A program made the translations under genes and the position numbers. The notes beneath the pieces were generated by a model. That model was given only the letters and a program-made list of their open reading frames with translations, ran no database searches and was not told where the DNA came from. Positions 20,819 through 28,018 of a stretch of DNA of 64,000 bases are shown in pieces. Origin of the DNA: Leifsonia sp. C5G2 (lineage in GTDB: Bacteria; Actinomycetota; Actinomycetes; Actinomycetales; Microbacteriaceae); the NCBI RefSeq assembly GCF_013359685.1, contig NZ_JABFMV010000002.1:1-64000 (forward strand), in the 5' to 3' direction. Numbering within the stretch: the stretch's first letter is position 1; every line of letters starts with the position of its first letter.

Positions 20819-21775
20819 TCAGGAGAGGAGGACGACGACGGGCGGCACGACGACGAGGAGGACGGTCGCGACGACGACAGAGGCGCGGAGCAGCGGCCCG
20901 ACCGTGCGGCGGCCGTCGGTCAGCCGATCCTCGCGCGCGGCCAGCGCCGCGCGCCGCTGCTCGGGGGTGCGCCGGTCCTTCGGCGCGCCGAGCACGGCGC
21001 CCGCCTGGCCGGTCTCGTCGACCAGCCGGATCGCTTCCGCGAGCACCGCATCCCCCGAGGTGCGCCGCGCGGTGTCGTCGGCGAGCATCTCCAGCAGCAG
21101 CGCCACGGCGTCCTGCGCCCGGGTCGCGATCGGGAACCACGGCAGCGAGCGCTTCCAGGAGCGGAACGCGTCGAGCAGCAGGTGGTGCTTCTGCCGCAGG
21201 TGGGCGCGCTCGTGGGCGACGACGGCGTCGAGCTCGGCGGGGGAGAGCAGCTCGATCATCCCCTCCGACAGCACGGTGACGCTGCGGGCCCCGGGCAGGC
21301 AGTAGGCGGCCGGCGCGGGATGGTCGATCACCCGCGTGCTCGGGGTGTCGGGCAGCGGCGACGACAGCAGCCGTAGCAGCTCCATGTGCCGGTGCCGCTG
21401 GTTGCGGCTGCGCACGGAGGTGAGCGCAAGGTTGAGCAGCAGGTGCGCCGTGAGCAGGACCGCGGCGCTCAGAAGGAAGGCGTTCAGCAGCGTGACGTCC
21501 GGCGGCAGGGGTCCGTGGAAGACCGAGGACGCGGCCCCCGCGATCCGGCTCCACAGGTCGTCGCCGAACGGCTGCAGCCCCGCGACGAGCAGCGACCCGA
21601 TCATCGAGATGCCTCCCGCGAGCGCGATCGACTGCCACAGGGCGACGGCGAGCACGGGGGCAGCGGACGGCCACTTCGCCCGGGCGAGCAGGAGCGGCAC
21701 CGGCCAGGCGAGGGCCACCGCGAGGGCGCCCAGGAAGACCGCGGCCCAGAGCCCCGTCACGGGGGAGGCGCTCAC
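20819..21775 (-). CDS. M56 (BlaR1-like) membrane metallopeptidase
   Basis: A 318-residue membrane protease. Hydrophobic segments are at about 8-32, 38-65 and 95-118, then a cytosolic-type protease domain with the zinc motif HERAH at 188-192 (AELDAVVAHERAHLRQKHH), and a final C-terminal membrane segment (about 297-317). There is no extracellular penicillin-binding sensor domain as in BlaR1/MecR1, so it is the short actinobacterial form. Its GTG overlaps the end of blaI (GTGTGA), so the two are translationally coupled. By analogy it inactivates the adjacent repressor by cleavage; the signal is unknown. An alternative is a repressor-independent protease. Confidence 0.88.
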   Translation of the reverse strand: MSASPVTGLWAAVFLGALAVALAWPVPLLLARAKWPSAAPVLAVALWQSIALAGGISMIGSLLVAGLQPFGDDLWSRIAGAASSVFHGPLPPDVTLLNAFLLSAAVLLTAHLLLNLALTSVRSRNQRHRHMELLRLLSSPLPDTPSTRVIDHPAPAAYCLPGARSVTVLSEGMIELLSPAELDAVVAHERAHLRQKHHLLLDAFRSWKRSLPWFPIATRAQDAVALLLEMLADDTARRTSGDAVLAEAIRLVDETGQAGAVLGAPKDRRTPEQRRAALAAREDRLTDGRRTVGPLLRASVVVATVLLVVVPPVVVLLS

Positions 21776-22140
21776 ACGCTGCGGGCGTCGAGGAGGCGCC
21801 GGAGCACCTCGGCCTCCGACTCGTCGACAGACCCGACGAAGTAGGCGAGTGCCTGGGTGCGGTCGGACGACGACTCGAGCACTTCGCGCATCAGGTCGGC
21901 GACGTGGCCGGCCCGGGTGAGCGCGGCGGTGTAGAGGTGGGGCCGGGCGTCGCGGTCGCGGGCGACGAATCCCTTCGACTCCAGGCGGGAGAGGACGGTG
22001 AGGATGGTGGTGAGCGCCGGTGCCTTGCCGCCCTGGCGCGCCGCCGCTAGCTTGTCGCGTAGCTCCCCGGCGGTGACGGGGGCTTCGCCGTCCCACAGGG
22101 CGTCCATGACGGCCCGTTCGAGTTCTCCGAGATTGGCCAC
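21772..22140 (-). CDS. BlaI/MecI/CopY family transcriptional repressor
   Basis: A 122-residue winged-helix repressor. It begins VANLGELERAVMDALWDGEAPVTAGELRD and continues LTTILTVLSRLESKGFVARDRDARPHLY, the recognition helix and wing of the family; the C-terminal helix mediates dimerisation. The GTG start is chosen because TACCCT ends six bases upstream; the longer open frame has no family similarity. It is divergent from cydA. Two perfect TTCTAC-N5-GTAGAA repeats lie in the 91-base gap, and the first overlaps its own -35 region. Control of cydABDC together with autoregulation is therefore a strong inference. Confidence 0.9.
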   Translation of the reverse strand: MANLGELERAVMDALWDGEAPVTAGELRDKLAAARQGGKAPALTTILTVLSRLESKGFVARDRDARPHLYTAALTRAGHVADLMREVLESSSDRTQALAYFVGSVDESEAEVLRRLLDARSV

Positions 22141-22146
22141 ATCCCC

Positions 22147-22152
22147 AGGGTA
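22147..22152 (-). promoter_or_regulatory. -10 element of blaI-like gene
   Basis: TACCCT on the minus strand, 6 nt before the GTG. The -35 position (about 22170-22175) overlaps operator 1. Confidence 0.5.
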
Positions 22153-22172
22153 GCGCGATCCGCCTGAGAATG

Positions 22173-22189
22173 TTCTACACTTTGTAGAA
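22173..22189. promoter_or_regulatory. BlaI-type operator 1
   Basis: TTCTAC-N5-GTAGAA; with the flanking bases the arms are TTCTACA/TGTAGAA around CTT. The TAC...GTA core is typical of the BlaI/MecI family. It overlaps the blaI -35. Confidence 0.75.
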
Positions 22190-22194
22190 GTTGG

Positions 22195-22215
22195 ACTTCT
22201 ACAGAACGTAGAAGT
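22195..22215. promoter_or_regulatory. BlaI-type operator 2
   Basis: ACTTCTAC-N5-GTAGAAGT, an 8-base perfect inverted repeat centred 24 bp from operator 1. It ends four bases before the cydA ribosome site GGAGGG (22219-22224), so a bound repressor would block the cydA transcription start region. Confidence 0.75.
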
Positions 22216-22231
22216 AACGGAGGGATGGCAT

Positions 22232-23644
22232 GTGAACGAGCTGCTGGATCCGCTCCTGCTGGCACGCTGGCAGTTCGGACTCACGACGATCTACCACTTC
22301 TTGTTCGTACCGCTCACCATCGGCCTGGTCACCTGCACCGCGATCTTCCAGACCGCCTGGTACCGCACCGGTAAGCCGCACTACCTGCAGCTGACGCACT
22401 TCTTCGGGAAGATCTTCCTCATCAACTTCGCGATGGGCGTCGTCACCGGCATCGTGCAGGAGTTCCAGTTCGGCATGAACTGGTCCGACTACTCGCGCTT
22501 CGTGGGCGACATCTTCGGCGCCCCGCTGGCACTTGAGGGCCTGCTCGCCTTCTTCTTGGAGGCCACCTTCATCGGCCTCTGGATCTTCGGCTGGGACAAG
22601 CTCCCCAAGGGCCTGCACCTCGCGACCATCTGGATCACGTCCATCGGCACCATCCTGTCGGCCTACTTCATCCTCGCCGCCAACGCGTTCATGCAGAACC
22701 CGGTCGGCTACCACATCAACGCTGCGAAGGGCCGCGCCGAGCTGACCGACCTCTGGGCCGTGCTCACCAACAAGGTCGCCCTCGCAGCCTTCCCGCACAC
22801 GATCTTCGGCTGCTTCATGGTCTCGGCGGGGCTCATCATCGCCGTCGCCGCCTGGCACCTGTCACGCAACCGGAACCTGGAGACCATGCGGCCGGCGCTC
22901 AAGTTCGGCCTGTGGCTGATGGTCGGTGCCGGGGTCGGGACGGTGCTCAGCGGCGACCAGCTGGGACTCGCCATGGTCTCGACCCAGCCGATGAAGATGG
23001 CCGCGGCCGAAGCCCTGTACAAGACCTCGACCGGAGCGGATGCGTCGTTCTCGATCTTCACCCTCGGAACGCCGGACGGCGTCCACGAGCTGTTCTCAAT
23101 CCGCATCCCGTACCTGCTGTCGTTCCTCTCCACGCACACCCTGAACGGCACGGTCGAGGGCATCAACGACCTGCAGGCGCAGTACACGCAGCTGTACGGC
23201 CCCGGCGACTACACGCCGATCATCTGGGTCACCTACTGGGCGTTCCGCTGGATGATCGGGCTCGGCATGCTGCACGTCCTGATCGCGGTCGTCGGCCTGT
23301 GGCTGACCCGCAAGGGCCGCAGCCCGGCCCGGCCCTGGATGTGGAAGATCGCCATCTGGGCCATGCCGCTCTCGCTGCTGGCCATGATCGTCGGCTGGAT
23401 CTTCACCGAGATGGGCCGGCAGCCGTGGATCGTGTTCAGCCTCATGAAGACGGCCGACGGCGTCTCGCCCGGCACGACCGGCCTCGAGGTGCTGATCTCG
23501 CTGATCGCCTTCACCGCCATCTACGGCACCCTCGCCGTCGTCGAGTTCAAGCTGATCAAACGCGCCGCCCAGAAGGGCCCGGAGCCGGTCGAGAAGCACC
23601 TCGACGAGGCCGGCGAGCCCGTCCCGGTCACGACGGTCTACTAG
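22232..23644 (+). CDS. cydA: cytochrome bd quinol oxidase subunit I
   Basis: A 470-residue polytopic subunit carrying haems b558, b595 and d. The enzyme reduces oxygen to water with menaquinol at high affinity. The haem ligand histidine H22 is in RWQFGLTTIYHF. LALEGLLAFFLEATFIGLWIFGWDK is the charged-residue proton path segment, GDQLGLAMVSTQPMKMAAAEA contains the quinol-site residues, and GRQPW is the family signature. At 470 residues it lacks the long insertion in the quinol loop of the E. coli enzyme, so it is the short Q-loop type. A GTG start with GGAGGG seven bases upstream. First gene of cydABDC, under probable BlaI control. Confidence 0.97.
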   Translation: MNELLDPLLLARWQFGLTTIYHFLFVPLTIGLVTCTAIFQTAWYRTGKPHYLQLTHFFGKIFLINFAMGVVTGIVQEFQFGMNWSDYSRFVGDIFGAPLALEGLLAFFLEATFIGLWIFGWDKLPKGLHLATIWITSIGTILSAYFILAANAFMQNPVGYHINAAKGRAELTDLWAVLTNKVALAAFPHTIFGCFMVSAGLIIAVAAWHLSRNRNLETMRPALKFGLWLMVGAGVGTVLSGDQLGLAMVSTQPMKMAAAEALYKTSTGADASFSIFTLGTPDGVHELFSIRIPYLLSFLSTHTLNGTVEGINDLQAQYTQLYGPGDYTPIIWVTYWAFRWMIGLGMLHVLIAVVGLWLTRKGRSPARPWMWKIAIWAMPLSLLAMIVGWIFTEMGRQPWIVFSLMKTADGVSPGTTGLEVLISLIAFTAIYGTLAVVEFKLIKRAAQKGPEPVEKHLDEAGEPVPVTTVY

Positions 23645-23657
23645 AAGGAGCACGAAA

Positions 23658-24698
23658 ATGGATCTGGCAGTTCTCTGGTTCGGCATCGTCGCCTTCTTCT
23701 TCGTCGGCTACTTCGTGCTCGACGGGTTCGACTTCGGGGTCGGTATGGCGCTGCCGTTCCTCGGCCGCGACGACACCGACCGGCGCGTGATGATCAACAC
23801 GATCGGTCCGGTCTGGGACCTCAACGAGACGTGGGTGATCGTCGGAGGCGCCGCGCTGTTCGCGGCCTTCCCGGAGTGGTACGCGACCCTGTTCAGCGGC
23901 TTCTACCTGGCGCTGCTGCTCATCCTGCTCGCGCTCATCGCGCGCGGCGTGTCGTTCGAGTACCGGCACCAGCGTCCCGACGCGCGGTGGAAGCGCTGGT
24001 TCGACGGGATGATCGTAGTCGGCTCCGCGCTGCCCGCGTTCCTCTGGGGCGTGGCGTTCGCCAACATCGTGCAGGGCGTCGCGCTGAACGCGCACCACGA
24101 CTACACCGGCACCCTGTTCGACCTGCTGAACGGCTACGCGCTGCTCGGCGGACTGACCACCCTGCTGCTGTTCTTCACCCACGGCGTGGTGTTCGTCTCG
24201 CTGAAGACGGACGGCGATCTCCGGGTGCGGGCGCGGAAGCTGGCCACCCGCTCGGGCGCCGCGGCGATCGTGGTGGCCGCCGTCTTCCTCGGCTGGACGG
24301 CGCTGAACCACTTCTCGCCGGTGTTCCTGGCCCTCGCGATCTTCGCCGCCGTGGCCCTGATCGCCTCCTGGATCGCGAACCTGCGCGGGGCCGAGGGCTG
24401 GTCGTTCGGCTTCATGGCCGCGACGATCGCGCTGGCCGTGGTCTCGCTGTTCGCGGCGCTGTTCCCGAACGTCATGCCGTCGTCGCCGAACCCGGAGAAC
24501 AGCCTGACGATCGCGAACGCGTCGAGCTCCGACACGACGCTGTCGATCATGACCTGGGTCGCGGCGATCTTCCTGCCGCTCATTTTGGTCTACCAGGGCT
24601 GGACGTACTGGATCTTCCGCAAGCGCGTGACCCGCGACCACATCCCGCAGGAGCGTGCCGACGACGCGGGGGAGCCGCAGCAGCCGGTGACCGCCTGA
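23658..24698 (+). CDS. cydB: cytochrome bd quinol oxidase subunit II
   Basis: A 346-residue membrane subunit without haem ligands that packs against CydA. It starts MDLAVLWFGIVAFFFVGYFVLDGFDFGVGM, the hallmark of the family, followed by GPVWDLNETWVIVGGAALFAAFPEWYA and GVAFANIVQGVALN. About eight or nine membrane segments are present. It begins 13 bases after cydA with AGAAGGAG in between. One base separates its stop from cydD. Confidence 0.97.
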   Translation: MDLAVLWFGIVAFFFVGYFVLDGFDFGVGMALPFLGRDDTDRRVMINTIGPVWDLNETWVIVGGAALFAAFPEWYATLFSGFYLALLLILLALIARGVSFEYRHQRPDARWKRWFDGMIVVGSALPAFLWGVAFANIVQGVALNAHHDYTGTLFDLLNGYALLGGLTTLLLFFTHGVVFVSLKTDGDLRVRARKLATRSGAAAIVVAAVFLGWTALNHFSPVFLALAIFAAVALIASWIANLRGAEGWSFGFMAATIALAVVSLFAALFPNVMPSSPNPENSLTIANASSSDTTLSIMTWVAAIFLPLILVYQGWTYWIFRKRVTRDHIPQERADDAGEPQQPVTA

Positions 24699-24699
24699 C

Positions 24700-26334
24700 A
24701 TGCGCCCGCTCGACCCGCGCCTCCTGAAGTACGCCTCCGCGACCCGCGGCACGCTCGCGGCCGGCGCCCTGCTCGCCGTACTGCGGACGGCGTGCGTCGT
24801 CGCCTTCTCGTGGCTGGTCACCGACGTGATCGTCCGCGCGATCGCGGGGGAGGAGCTGGGCTCGCTGGGCGGGACGCTGCTGCTGCTCGCCGGGGTCGTC
24901 GCCGCGCGCGGTCTGCTGCTGTGGGCGACGGACGCGGTGGCGGCCCGAGGAGGCGCCCGGGCCGTCGGCCAGCTTCGTGAGCGGCTGACCGCGGCGATCG
25001 GGAGGCTGGGCCCCGGGTGGGTCGCCCGGCGCAGCTCCGGCGACGTGACCCTGGTCGCCGGACACGGCATGGAGGCGCTGGAGGGCTACTTCGCCGGCTA
25101 CCTGCCGCAGCTGGTCGCCACCGCGGTGGCCACGCCGCTCCTCGTGCTGACCATCGGCTGGGCGGACCTGACCAGCGGGATCGTGCTGCTCGTCACGCTC
25201 CCGCTCATCCCCGTCTTCATGGTGCTCGTCGGCTGGGCGACCCAGGCGGCGCAGAAGCGGCAGTGGCGCGCGCTGTCGACGCTGTCGAGCGGCTTCCTGG
25301 ATGTCGTCGCCGGGCTCTCCACGCTGAAGCTGTTCGGCAGGCAACACCGGCAGGAGGCGCGCATCCGCGAGGTCAGCGACCAGTACCGGATGCACACGAT
25401 GAAGGTGCTGCGGATGTCGTTCCTCTCCGGCTTCGTGCTCGAGCTGGTGGCGAGCCTGTCGGTCGCAGTGATCGCGGTCACGATCGGGCTCCGGCTGCTG
25501 GGCGGCTCGCTGGATCTGTCGGTCGGCCTGTTCGTGCTGCTGCTCGCGCCGGAGGCGTTCCTGCCGCTCCGGAACGTCGGCGCGAGCTACCACGCGGCGG
25601 CCGAGGGCATGGAGGCGGCGGATCGGGCGTTCGCGGTCATCGAAGCGGCGGACGGCGTCGGAGAACCGGCCGTCGCGCCCGGTGCGACGCCCGGCGACGG
25701 GCTGGTGTTCGACGAGGTGACCGTCGGGTACGACGGGCGGACGGTGGTCGACGGCTTCACCGCCGAGGTGCCGCCGGGCGAGCTGGCGGTGCTGCGGGCG
25801 CCGAGCGGAGCGGGCAAGTCGTCCCTTGTCGGCGCGGCGCTCGGGTTCGTGCCCGCGGAGGGTCGCATCCTCGCCGGCGGCCGGGCGGACGCCGAGGGCC
25901 GCCGGGGCGCGATCGCGTGGGCCGGACAGCGCCCGGGGCTCGTCGCGGGCACCATCGCCGACAACGTGGCGCTCGGCAACCCGGCGCCGGACGAAGCCGC
26001 CGTCACCGAGGCGCTGCGCGATGCGGCGGCCGGCGAACTCGATCCGGGGACGGAGCTCGGCGCCGGCGGCACCGGGCTCTCCGGAGGCCAAGCGCAGCGC
26101 GTCGCCGTCGCGCGGGCGCTCTACCGGCTGCGGACCCGCGGGTGCCGGGTGCTCATCCTCGACGAGCCGACCTCGGCGCTGGACGCCGCGACCGAGCGCC
26201 GGCTGCTGGCGTCGCTGCGGCGCGTGGCGGAACAGGGCGCGGCGGTGCTCGTGGTCAGCCACCGGAATGCGGCCGCGGAGGCCGCCGACCGGGTGATCGC
26301 CGTCGAGTCGGAGGAGGCGTCCCGTGTCCGCTGA
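24700..26334 (+). CDS. cydD: thiol reductant ABC exporter subunit CydD
   Basis: A 544-residue half-transporter with an N-terminal six-helix membrane domain (about 15-300) and a C-terminal ATPase. With CydC it exports glutathione or cysteine-type reductants needed for cytochrome bd assembly. The Walker A region is APSGAGKS at 367-374, with alanine where the first glycine of GxxGxGKS normally stands. The signature LSGGQ is near 460 and Walker B LILDEPTSALD follows. RGARAVGQLRERL and GHGMEALEGYF are typical of CydD. It overlaps cydC by 11 bases. If the Walker A change weakens ATP binding, CydC would supply the main site. Confidence 0.95.
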   Translation: MRPLDPRLLKYASATRGTLAAGALLAVLRTACVVAFSWLVTDVIVRAIAGEELGSLGGTLLLLAGVVAARGLLLWATDAVAARGGARAVGQLRERLTAAIGRLGPGWVARRSSGDVTLVAGHGMEALEGYFAGYLPQLVATAVATPLLVLTIGWADLTSGIVLLVTLPLIPVFMVLVGWATQAAQKRQWRALSTLSSGFLDVVAGLSTLKLFGRQHRQEARIREVSDQYRMHTMKVLRMSFLSGFVLELVASLSVAVIAVTIGLRLLGGSLDLSVGLFVLLLAPEAFLPLRNVGASYHAAAEGMEAADRAFAVIEAADGVGEPAVAPGATPGDGLVFDEVTVGYDGRTVVDGFTAEVPPGELAVLRAPSGAGKSSLVGAALGFVPAEGRILAGGRADAEGRRGAIAWAGQRPGLVAGTIADNVALGNPAPDEAAVTEALRDAAAGELDPGTELGAGGTGLSGGQAQRVAVARALYRLRTRGCRVLILDEPTSALDAATERRLLASLRRVAEQGAAVLVVSHRNAAAEAADRVIAVESEEASRVR

Positions 26335-28018
26335 GACGCTCACCGCGCCAACTCCCGAGGTGCGTCGCATCCTGCGGCTCGCCGTGCCGCCCGCGGGCCG
26401 GCTGGGCACCGCGATCGCCTTCGGCGTGCTGAGCGGGGCGAGCGCGGTGGCGCTGCTCGGGGTGTCCGCGTGGCTGATCACGCGGGCGTCGGAGCAGCCG
26501 GCGATGCTGTACCTGTCGATGGCGGTCGTGGGTGTTCGCGCGTTCGCTCTCGGCCGGGCGTTCTTCCGCTATCTGGAGCGCCTCGCCGGGCACGACGCCG
26601 CGTTCCGTCAGCTCGGCACCGTCCGCTCGCGGCTGTACCGGCGGCTCGAGCCGCTGGCCCCCGACGGCCTCCGCGGCGTCCGCTCGGGAGACCTGCTGAC
26701 GCGGGTGGCCGACGACGTCGACGAGCTGCAGAATCTCGCCCTGCGGGTCGTGCAGCCCCTGGTCACCGCGGCCGTCGTCGTGACGGGGAGCGCCGTCGTC
26801 GCCTTCCTCATCCTCCCGGCCGCGGGGGTCGCGCTGCTGGCGACCCTGCTGGTGGCCCTCGTCGCCGGCGTGCTCGTGAACCGGTGGGCGACCGCCTCGT
26901 CGGAGCGGCGGATCGCCCCGCTGCGCGCCGCCCTGAACGACGCACTGCACGACCTGGTCGCGAACCTCGACGTCCTCACCGCGTACGACGCGCTGCCCGC
27001 CGCGCAGGGGCGGGTGCGGCTGGCGAGCGACCGGCTGACGGCGGCCGCGCGGTCGCGTGCCGCGGGGCTGGGCGTGACGGCCGGCGTCGTGTCCGTGCTC
27101 GCGGGCGCCGCGACCGTGTGGGCGCTGGCCGCCGGGGTCCCCGCTCTCCGCGACGGCGCGCTCAGCGCGCCGGGACTCGCGGTGCTCGCCCTCCTCCCGT
27201 TGGCGGTGTTCGAGGTGTTCGGGATGGTCCCGCTCGCGTTCGGCGCCTGGCGTCGGGTGCGCGCGAGCGCCGAGCGGATCGCGGACGTCGCTCCCGCGAC
27301 CGTGCCCGACGGCATCCCGGTGGACACCCCGGACGCGTCACCGCTCGCGCTCGGCGGCGTGCCGGAGGTGCGGCTCGACGGTGTGACGGCGCATTGGCCG
27401 GATGCGGAAGGCGACGTACTCAGCGACGTGTCGCTGCGGCTGCGGCCGGGGGAGCGCGTCGTGCTCACCGGGCCGACCGGGGCCGGCAAGACCGCCCTCG
27501 CGCACGTCCTCACCCGCCTGCTCGACCACACCGGCTGCTACGCGCTCGACGGGGTCGAGACACGCGGGCTCCGGCAGGACGACGTGCGGCGCGCGGTCGG
27601 GCTCGTGGAGCAGCGACCGTACCTGTTCGACGCCGACCTGCGGCAGAACCTCCTCTTCGCCCGCGACACGGCCACCGACGACGAACTGCTCGCGGCGCTC
27701 GACCGGGTCGGGCTCGCCGAGTGGACGGCCGAGCGCGGCGGGCTCGACGCTCGCGTGGGCGAGCGTGGCGCGCTGGTCTCCGGCGGTCAGGCGCAGCGGA
27801 TCGCCCTGGCTCGGGCGCTGCTCGCCGACTTCCCGGTGCTGGTCGTCGACGAGCCCACGGCGAACGTGGATGCGGCGGCCGCCGGCGCGATCGTCCGCGA
27901 CGTCCTCACCACGGCCGCGGAGGACGGCCGCACGGTGCTGCTGATCTCGCACACCGATGTCCCGGCAGACCTCGTCGACCGCACCCTCCGACTGGAGGGC
28001 GGCCGGCTCATCGCCTAG
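26324..28018 (+). CDS. cydC: thiol reductant ABC exporter subunit CydC
   Basis: A 564-residue partner of CydD. The membrane domain (about 20-310) contains FGVLSGASAVALLGVSAWLITRA and RAFALGRAFFRYLERLAGHDAAFR, characteristic of CydC. The ATPase domain has an intact Walker A GPTGAGKT at 383-390, a signature written VSGGQAQR and Walker B VLVVDEPTANVD. The start GTG lies 11 bases inside cydD. It is the last gene of the unit; a long imperfect stem-loop separates it from the convergent pabC-like gene. Confidence 0.95.
   Translation: MSAETLTAPTPEVRRILRLAVPPAGRLGTAIAFGVLSGASAVALLGVSAWLITRASEQPAMLYLSMAVVGVRAFALGRAFFRYLERLAGHDAAFRQLGTVRSRLYRRLEPLAPDGLRGVRSGDLLTRVADDVDELQNLALRVVQPLVTAAVVVTGSAVVAFLILPAAGVALLATLLVALVAGVLVNRWATASSERRIAPLRAALNDALHDLVANLDVLTAYDALPAAQGRVRLASDRLTAAARSRAAGLGVTAGVVSVLAGAATVWALAAGVPALRDGALSAPGLAVLALLPLAVFEVFGMVPLAFGAWRRVRASAERIADVAPATVPDGIPVDTPDASPLALGGVPEVRLDGVTAHWPDAEGDVLSDVSLRLRPGERVVLTGPTGAGKTALAHVLTRLLDHTGCYALDGVETRGLRQDDVRRAVGLVEQRPYLFDADLRQNLLFARDTATDDELLAALDRVGLAEWTAERGGLDARVGERGALVSGGQAQRIALARALLADFPVLVVDEPTANVDAAAAGAIVRDVLTTAAEDGRTVLLISHTDVPADLVDRTLRLEGGRLIA

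What the first reader, a model, noticed from the sequence alone, without database searches (positions are those of the whole stretch)
21772..24698. BlaI-type repressor and M56 protease tied to cytochrome bd
Seen: two matching inverted repeats TTCTAC-N5-GTAGAA, 24 bp apart, in the 91-base gap between divergent blaI and cydA, one over the blaI -35 and one close to the cydA ribosome site. Known: BlaI-type repressors bind TAC/GTA-based inverted repeats and M56 proteases can inactivate them, classically for beta-lactamase. In Mycobacterium tuberculosis a BlaI homolog has been linked to respiratory genes. Inference: a membrane signal, perhaps respiratory or redox, releases cydABDC by proteolysis of the repressor. 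There is no sensor domain, so the signal is an open question.
Basis: partly seen in the sequence, partly recalled or inferred. Interest (0 to 1): 0.7.

Follow-up and report, generated by a model that had tools for sequence, protein, structure and literature searches.

The report
BlaI–protease switch for cytochrome bd
A repressor and membrane protease related to the pair that controls penicillin resistance sit beside an alternative oxygen-using enzyme (cytochrome bd) with paired DNA switch sites between them, and the arrangement recurs in many actinobacteria, which makes it a probable switch for respiration.

Summary
In detail: two exact TTCTAC-N5-GTAGAA palindromes, 24 bp apart, lie in the 91-base gap between divergent blaI and cydABDC; the genome has one more. 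An M56/M48-type membrane protease gene overlaps the end of blaI.

The link is conserved. Protease–blaI–site–cydA recurs in 80 of 80 named relatives (the best 80 of at least 541). In 150 family genomes, 58 of 60 with a close BlaI have cydA divergent beside it. Exact sites occur in 56 of those 60, 9 of 28 with a remote BlaI, and 2 of 62 without. In 75 loci the arm spacing is 5 in 190 of 190 cases (n 0–12). Three diverged CydA lineages carry the module. In other families the operator drifts to TACTAC-N5-GTAGTA; five of five mycobacteria-like cydA genes, unlinked to blaI, have it too.

Best reading: BlaI represses itself, the protease and cyd; the protease removes BlaI on a respiratory signal. Repression is well supported, proteolysis inferred by homology, the signal unknown. 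A mycobacterial BlaI–cyd link is already in print; the dedicated module in other actinobacteria was not found in the library searched.

The parts
20819..21775 (-). M56/M48-type membrane metalloprotease (318 aa, GTG start overlapping the blaI stop); four hydropathy-predicted membrane helices, HERAH at residue 188, Glu229; no sensor domain after the last helix
21772..22140 (-). blaI, 122-aa Penicillinase_R-family repressor (GTG start), no cysteines
   Evidence: PF03965 1.2e-20; only full-length member in the genome; PDB 2g9w 1e-27 with alignment A1
22173..22189 (.). operator 1, TTCTAC-N5-GTAGAA
22197..22213 (.). operator 2, TTCTAC-N5-GTAGAA, ending 5 bases before the likely cydA ribosome-binding site
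22232..23644 (+). cydA, cytochrome bd subunit I, 470 aa (only CydA match of the genome)
23658..24698 (+). cydB, cytochrome bd subunit II
24700..26334 (+). cydD, thiol reductant ABC exporter subunit
   Evidence: TIGR02857 over cut-off
26324..28018 (+). cydC, thiol reductant ABC exporter subunit
   Evidence: TIGR02868 over cut-off

Best explanation
A BlaI-family repressor, co-encoded with an M56-type membrane protease that lacks a beta-lactam sensor domain, binds two tandem TTCTAC-N5-GTAGAA operators in the shared blaI/cydA control region and represses both its own operon and cydABDC. When respiration or energy supply is disturbed (signal unknown), the protease inactivates BlaI, so the copper-free cytochrome bd branch, and in relatives further energy genes, is switched on. 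Shown by sequence: anatomy, operator, spacing, conservation, co-occurrence. Inferred: DNA binding by this BlaI, cleavage by the protease, the nature of the signal.
For: Sites exact and rare. The 80 best named relatives all keep protease, blaI, at least one dyad and divergent cydA. 58 of 60 family genomes with close BlaI have cydA divergent within 700 bp; exact sites in 56/60 with close BlaI, 9/28 with remote BlaI, 2/62 without, Fisher p 4e-27 for close against none. All 14 cydA loci laid from BlaI-less genomes lack a site with 0-1 mismatch. Spacer: 190 hits at n=5, none at n=0-4 or 6-12 in 75 loci. In five f33 genomes all 9 exact TACTAC-N5-GTAGTA lie in the blaI-cydA gap. Mycobacteria-like genomes: 5/5 cydA upstream regions and 2/2 blaI upstream regions fetched carry it with 0-1 mismatch although the genes are unlinked. 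The module stands before three CydA lineages. Where cydDC is split off in two Microbacterium loci it has its own exact site.
Against: No binding or expression data for this organism. No recognisable promoter in the gap, so what the sites block is not defined. Four of 60 close-BlaI genomes lack an exact site; G097 has cydA far from blaI, and G069 has BlaI but no CydA match. Of 8 cydA loci from genomes with remote BlaI, 4 lack a site with 0-1 mismatch. Three of 17 Frankia-like loci have neither CydA nor site in the fetched stretch. In three mycobacteria-like genomes the exact dyads stand before other genes, the cydA ones having one mismatch. By Pfam the protease scores better as M48 than M56 and the window member is under the M56 cut-off. 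Its structure could not be predicted. No evidence for any particular signal.
Confidence: 0.77

Rival explanations
1. BlaI represses cyd, but is released directly by a small ligand or metal (CopY-like) or by redox chemistry, and the M56 protein is incidental.
For: The only NCBIfam match of BlaI is CopY/TcrY at 27.1 bits (cut-off 121.95). Two streamlined relatives have a remote BlaI with its sites beside a PCuAC copper-chaperone gene (L050, L055).
Against: This BlaI has no cysteine (sequence), so it lacks the metal site that CopY is known for (recalled). A protease homologue accompanies blaI in 80 of 80 named loci, 10 of 10 fetched f26/f33 loci and both fetched mycobacteria-like blaI loci, where blaI is not next to cydA. 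HEXXH is present in 121 of 123 extracted proteins; the other two are short extracted ORFs of 173 and 166 aa.
Confidence: 0.12
2. It is an ordinary beta-lactam or cell-wall stress BlaR1/BlaI system, and cyd is induced as part of that stress response.
For: Family names; PMC5473688 (passages read) reports blaI-blaR and cydAB among genes induced by a beta-lactam plus clavulanate in M. tuberculosis.
Against: The protease ends after its last membrane helix, without a penicillin-binding sensor domain, and recurring exact sites in relatives precede respiratory and energy genes. Presence of beta-lactamase genes was not surveyed.
Confidence: 0.08
3. Another transcription factor, not this BlaI, binds the palindromes; the neighbourhood is inherited linkage.
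For: Binding has not been tested here; 9 of 28 genomes with only a remote BlaI have sites.
Against: Sites track BlaI across 150 genomes; sites stay with cyd when blaI is elsewhere (L053, L054); the arrangement survives exchange of the CydA lineage.
Confidence: 0.03

Closest known systems
BlaR1/BlaI and MecR1/MecI of staphylococci
   Same: Repressor of the same Pfam family (PF03965; MecI and BlaI structures matched), dyad operators built on TAC/GTA (recalled), gene for a zinc membrane protease with HEXXH coupled to the repressor gene; the phenylalanine at the reported BlaI/MecI cut (recalled) aligns with Phe101 here, invariant in 20 aligned.
   Different: No extracellular penicillin-binding sensor; target is cytochrome bd, not beta-lactamase or PBP2a; operator spacer is N5.
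Mycobacterial BlaI/BlaR (Rv1846c/Rv1845c)
   Same: Closest solved structure 2g9w (that it is the M. tuberculosis BlaI is recalled); BlaR without sensor domain and BlaI binding at cytochrome bd and ATP synthase promoters (PMC5473688, passages read); repression of the atp operon (PMC12565901, passages read).
   Different: There blaI and cydA are unlinked and a TACTAC-N5-GTAGTA-type dyad stands before cydA; here the module is dedicated, divergent and has paired TTCTAC-N5-GTAGAA sites.
Rex, CRP, RegX3 control of cyd genes in other actinobacteria
   Same: Control of the same operon (Rex and CRP recalled; RegX3 control of cydB stated in PMC7924339, passages read).
   Different: Unrelated regulators; the one Streptomyces-like cydA upstream region examined had no TACTAC-type site and only a 2-mismatch TTCTAC-type match 215 bases upstream.

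Membership tests
BlaI/MecI repressor family (Penicillinase_R, PF03965) | Family profile over full length above the curated cut-off | tested here: met
   74.4 bits against cut-off 22.6, residues 4-118
BlaI/MecI repressor family (Penicillinase_R, PF03965) | Dyad operator of TAC...GTA type at own promoter and target promoter | tested here: met
   two exact dyads in the shared gap, conserved; binding itself not tested
BlaI/MecI repressor family (Penicillinase_R, PF03965) | Inactivation by proteolysis by a partner protease | not testable with these tools
   only the partner gene and the conserved Phe101 were seen
M56 peptidase (BlaR1 family, PF05569) | Profile score above the curated cut-off | tested here: not met
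   window member 19.6 bits, cut-off 31; 18 of 20 homologues match M56 at E up to 0.01 (best 2.5e-10) and 20 of 20 match M48
M56 peptidase (BlaR1 family, PF05569) | HEXXH plus downstream Glu in a domain between membrane helices 3 and 4 | tested here: met
   HERAH188, Glu229 invariant in 20; helices 12-30, 38-56, 90-108, 299-317 by hydropathy in the window member; the helix-4 segment is missing in 3 of the 20; which side of the membrane is not tested
BlaR1 beta-lactam receptor | C-terminal extracellular penicillin-binding sensor domain | tested here: not met
   protein ends about 130 residues after HEXXH, directly after helix 4
CopY copper repressor | NCBIfam equivalog cut-off and cysteine metal site | tested here: not met
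   27.1 bits against 121.95; no cysteine in the sequence printed

The most novel reading that the evidence does not exclude
In actinobacteria the BlaI–M56 pair is primarily a respiratory stress switch that predates or stands apart from beta-lactam sensing: a membrane protease without external sensor reads the state of the electron transport chain (quinol pool, proton-motive force, blocked haem-copper oxidase or NO) inside the membrane and, by destroying BlaI, turns on cytochrome bd and, in some lineages, NO detoxification, ATP synthase and overflow metabolism.
Probability: 0.4. Interest if true: 0.85.

Novelty: new variant of a known kind. Interest (0 to 1): 0.62.

Why it matters
Cytochrome bd lets actinobacteria cope with low oxygen, NO and respiration-blocking drugs. 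If a BlaI–protease pair is its dedicated switch in many of them, then what sensor-less BlaR proteins sense becomes testable in harmless soil bacteria, through a short, well-defined operator and a clear reporter gene. It would also recast the BlaI/M56 pair in these bacteria as a regulator of respiration rather than of antibiotic resistance.

Tried and rejected
A first whole-genome pattern was badly written and found nothing; it was replaced. The reversed-pattern control of the search tool (63 sites in 150 genomes) is not a fair background: in the 62 BlaI-less genomes the true pattern gave 2 sites and the reversed one 24, so I used BlaI-less genomes as background. Against the reversed control alone, the sites away from cyd would not stand out as a set. 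The invariant Cys159 (YCLP motif) of the protease was considered as a redox sensor specific to cyd control and dropped, because mycobacteria-like proteins whose genes are not next to cydA have it too. In that call I also counted the Frankia-like pairs as unlinked to cyd; some searches showed that 14 of 17 do stand by a third CydA lineage. The idea that f26 uses an 8-base spacer was set aside: the same gaps also read as TACTAC-N5-GTAGTA with 1-2 mismatches; the 8-base reading is not excluded. Chance and hitchhiking were rejected. My first count of sites per locus included a distant site of L146; one search recounts strictly inside the gap.

Not assigned or possibly chance among sites away from cyd: inside ORFs or without a clear gene (L069, L161, L175, L189, L190), SRAP (L191), HTH regulators (L183, L184), a membrane protein without Pfam hit (L178; L173 looks alike but was not scanned), pyrophosphatase (L185), PPK2 (L192), ferric reductase-like (L056), pyridine nucleotide-disulphide oxidoreductase (L057). 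The sites at G052:C12 and G040:C13 were not inspected. In three mycobacteria-like genomes two exact sites precede a similar small membrane protein and two precede other genes.

Papers that led nowhere (passages looked for): PMC8265638 (only a reference), PMC10581053 (blaIII, not BlaI), PMC8765290 (none), PMC4301838 and PMC4757040 (BlaI mentioned without cyd).
Full report
WHAT IS THERE. The window is part of a 4.09-Mb genome (contig C22). The nearest named relative by BlaI is Leifsonia virtsii (98 % in the listing), so this is very probably a Leifsonia. On the minus strand a 318-residue membrane protease gene (20819-21775) overlaps by four bases the end of blaI (21772-22140). On the plus strand cydA, cydB, cydD and cydC follow closely (22232-28018). 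Between the two start codons lie 91 bases with two exact copies of TTCTAC-N5-GTAGAA at 22173 and 22197. The window has no other exact copy and the genome one more. The genome has one full-length BlaI-family protein (two other PF03965 matches cover only the N-terminal half, one of them below the cut-off) and one CydA.

CONSERVATION IN NAMED GENOMES. In all 80 the protease homologue follows blaI, cydA is divergent on the other side, and at least one CTAC-N5-GTAG dyad lies within 400 bases upstream of blaI. They are Microbacteriaceae and Micrococcaceae (Leifsonia, Cryobacterium, Agromyces, Humibacter, Microbacterium, Arthrobacter, Pseudarthrobacter, Sinomonas and others). These are the closest BlaI relatives, so 80 of 80 is not an unbiased rate. 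Together with the 30 best family loci (110 in all, 107 of them different around the gap), 97 have two or more exact sites inside the gap, 12 have one and 1 (L044) has none; 71 of 153 neighbouring pairs are 24 or 25 bp apart. In 75 full-length named loci TCTAC-Nn-GTAGA occurs 190 times with n = 5 and never with n = 0-4 or 6-12 in the 420 bases upstream of blaI.

FAMILY SAMPLE. Of 150 genomes of the family, 88 have a BlaI match. I split these after seeing the scores into 60 close (E of 2.5e-23 or better) and 28 remote. Exact sites occur in 56 of 60, 9 of 28, and 2 of the 62 genomes without BlaI (Fisher p 4e-27, close against none). The tool's reversed-pattern control hits 30, 8 and 19 genomes, so it also varies with group, less strongly. 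Of the 60, 58 have cydA within 700 bases, each time divergent; G097 has its cydA elsewhere and G069 has no CydA match. Two genomes with remote BlaI (G006, G089) have the same adjacency. CydA itself is present in 114 of 150. laid 30 loci; the 14 from BlaI-less genomes have no site with 0 or 1 mismatch within about 1.5 kb (four have one 2-mismatch match, each more than 1 kb from the cydA start). Of the 8 from genomes with remote BlaI, 2 have exact sites, 2 a one-mismatch site and 4 neither. In G135 and G072 the exact sites precede cydA although blaI lies elsewhere.

THREE CYDA LINEAGES. In the 110 loci the neighbouring CydA is either like that of the window (38 loci, 75-100 % identity) or a second form (72 loci, 42-49 %). 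On a quick tree of BlaI plus protease of 108 loci the type changes once (support of that branch only 41, several long branches). The other 3 loci have neither within the stretch held. In two Microbacterium loci cydDC lies apart and has an exact site of its own: in L116 8 bases before a fused cydDC, in L146 before a cydD homologue. So the sites follow the cytochrome bd function, not one gene lineage.

BEYOND THE ORDER. In a class sample of 296 genomes BlaI was found in 181 and CydA in 219. From the cut lists I compared 91 BlaI and 35 CydA places picked by eye; 26 pairs are adjacent, all divergent, 21 of them outside the family. This is a lower bound and no rate. Ten such loci from two other families (f26, f33; probably Micromonosporaceae and Nocardioidaceae, inferred) all have the protease too. 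Their gap holds TACTAC-N5-GTAGTA (f33) or one- or two-mismatch forms of it (f26). In the five f33 genomes searched, all 9 exact copies of that sequence in the genome lie in this gap; the four f26 genomes searched have no exact copy. In five genomes of f10, blaI and cydA are apart, yet each cydA upstream region has the TACTAC form with 0-1 mismatch, and so do both blaI upstream regions fetched. f10 is mycobacterial or close to it: the BlaI of L268 matches PDB 2g9w at 200 bits; that 2g9w is the M. tuberculosis BlaI is recalled. In the three f10 genomes of genus g97 the exact copies stand before other genes. One Streptomyces-like cydA region had no TACTAC-type site; one f23 region had sites with 1-2 mismatches.

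OTHER SITES. I counted 31 listed exact sites away from the cyd locus in 18 genomes with close BlaI (lists cut, so more may exist), against 2 sites in 62 BlaI-less genomes. Those that recur stand before flavohemoglobin genes (5 genomes, 3 genera: L060, L061, L174, L186, L187), the ATP synthase a-subunit gene (3 genomes, 2 genera: L155, where the ORF as called starts 277 bases away, L180, L181), phosphate acetyltransferase (3 genomes of one genus: L177, L179, L182) and a DUF1254/DUF1214 gene in all 3 sampled genomes of the window's genus (L001, L157, L188); all of these were confirmed by Pfam. One pair of sites lies between an MFS transporter and a molybdopterin-binding-domain gene (L176). In four small genomes with remote or no close BlaI, sites lie before a PCuAC copper-chaperone gene (L050, L055, L051, L052), in L050 and L055 followed by a Dyp peroxidase and beside a remote blaI. 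ATP synthase is also a reported BlaI target in mycobacteria (PMC12565901, passages; PMC5874750, passages). This regulon is a prediction from sequence; single cases may be chance.

HOW IT PROBABLY WORKS. Shown: the layout, and that the dyads go with BlaI-bearing genomes and cyd genes. Inferred from the family: BlaI dimers bind the two dyads and block both divergent units, so the repressor-protease operon is autoregulated; the membrane protease cleaves BlaI on a signal; cytochrome bd and its CydDC exporter are released. The protease has four hydropathy-predicted helices, HEXXH and Glu229 invariant in 20 aligned, and ends after helix 4. The loop between helices 2 and 3, external if the BlaR1 topology (recalled) applies, is poorly conserved and shortened in some members, while the first two helices, their connecting loop and the zinc domain are conserved. 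This speaks against an external sensor domain and for sensing in the membrane or cytoplasm. Phe101 of BlaI, invariant in the 20 aligned, aligns with a Phe of MecI at the reported cleavage site (recalled). No promoter was recognised.

WHAT IS KNOWN. PMC5473688 (passages read) states that BlaR of mycobacteria lacks the sensor domain and that BlaI binds promoters of blaC, cytochrome bd and ATP synthase, citing Sala 2009, which is not held. So BlaI acting on cyd is in print for M. tuberculosis. Searches for BlaI with cytochrome bd (65 papers, 20 listed), cydA (59, 20 listed) or cydAB (21, 20 listed), Rv1846c/Rv1845c (27, 20 listed), BlaI with Corynebacterium glutamicum (269, 12 listed), BlaR with cytochrome bd and BlaI (2), cydABDC/Arthrobacter/BlaI (337, 15 listed), and M56 family or penicillinase repressor with cytochrome bd or BlaI family with respiratory and Actinobacteria (0 each) showed, in the titles and abstract starts listed, no paper on a dedicated protease-BlaI-cyd locus in other actinobacteria. 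The lists were cut, the word-start match brings in unrelated words, and the library is open-access only, so this is not proof of novelty.

VERDICT. A real, conserved regulatory module: a new variant of the BlaI/BlaR kind, dedicated to respiration. The repressor-operator link is about as firm as sequence alone can make it; the protease step is likely; the signal is the open and interesting question.

Noticed in passing
G000:C11:203570-203586 (L001:1501-1517): Third exact operator of the genome, 32 bp before a DUF1254/DUF1214 gene; the same kind of gene has an exact site at its 5' end in the two other genomes of the genus sampled (L157, L188; Pfam).
   Followed up: partly
L050, L055, L051, L052 (small Microbacteriaceae genomes): Exact sites before a PCuAC copper-chaperone gene, in L050 and L055 followed by a Dyp-type peroxidase and next to a remote blaI; suggests a link of a related regulon to copper or oxidase assembly.
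   Followed up: partly
L060, L061, L174, L186, L187: Exact sites before flavohemoglobin (NO dioxygenase-type) genes in five genomes of three genera.
   Followed up: partly
G049:C1:3042870-3044390: The CydA profile beside blaI is matched in two pieces (1-208 and 205-417) within one open frame, and the locus (L044) lacks an operator dyad; possibly an insertion in the protein or a diverging copy.
   Followed up: no
L116:9010 and L146:7875 (Microbacterium): cydDC split from cydAB and carrying its own exact operator.
   Followed up: yes
L173, L178: A membrane protein of about 380-405 aa with an exact site about 20 bp upstream in two genomes of one genus; L178 has no Pfam match, L173 was not scanned.
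   Followed up: partly
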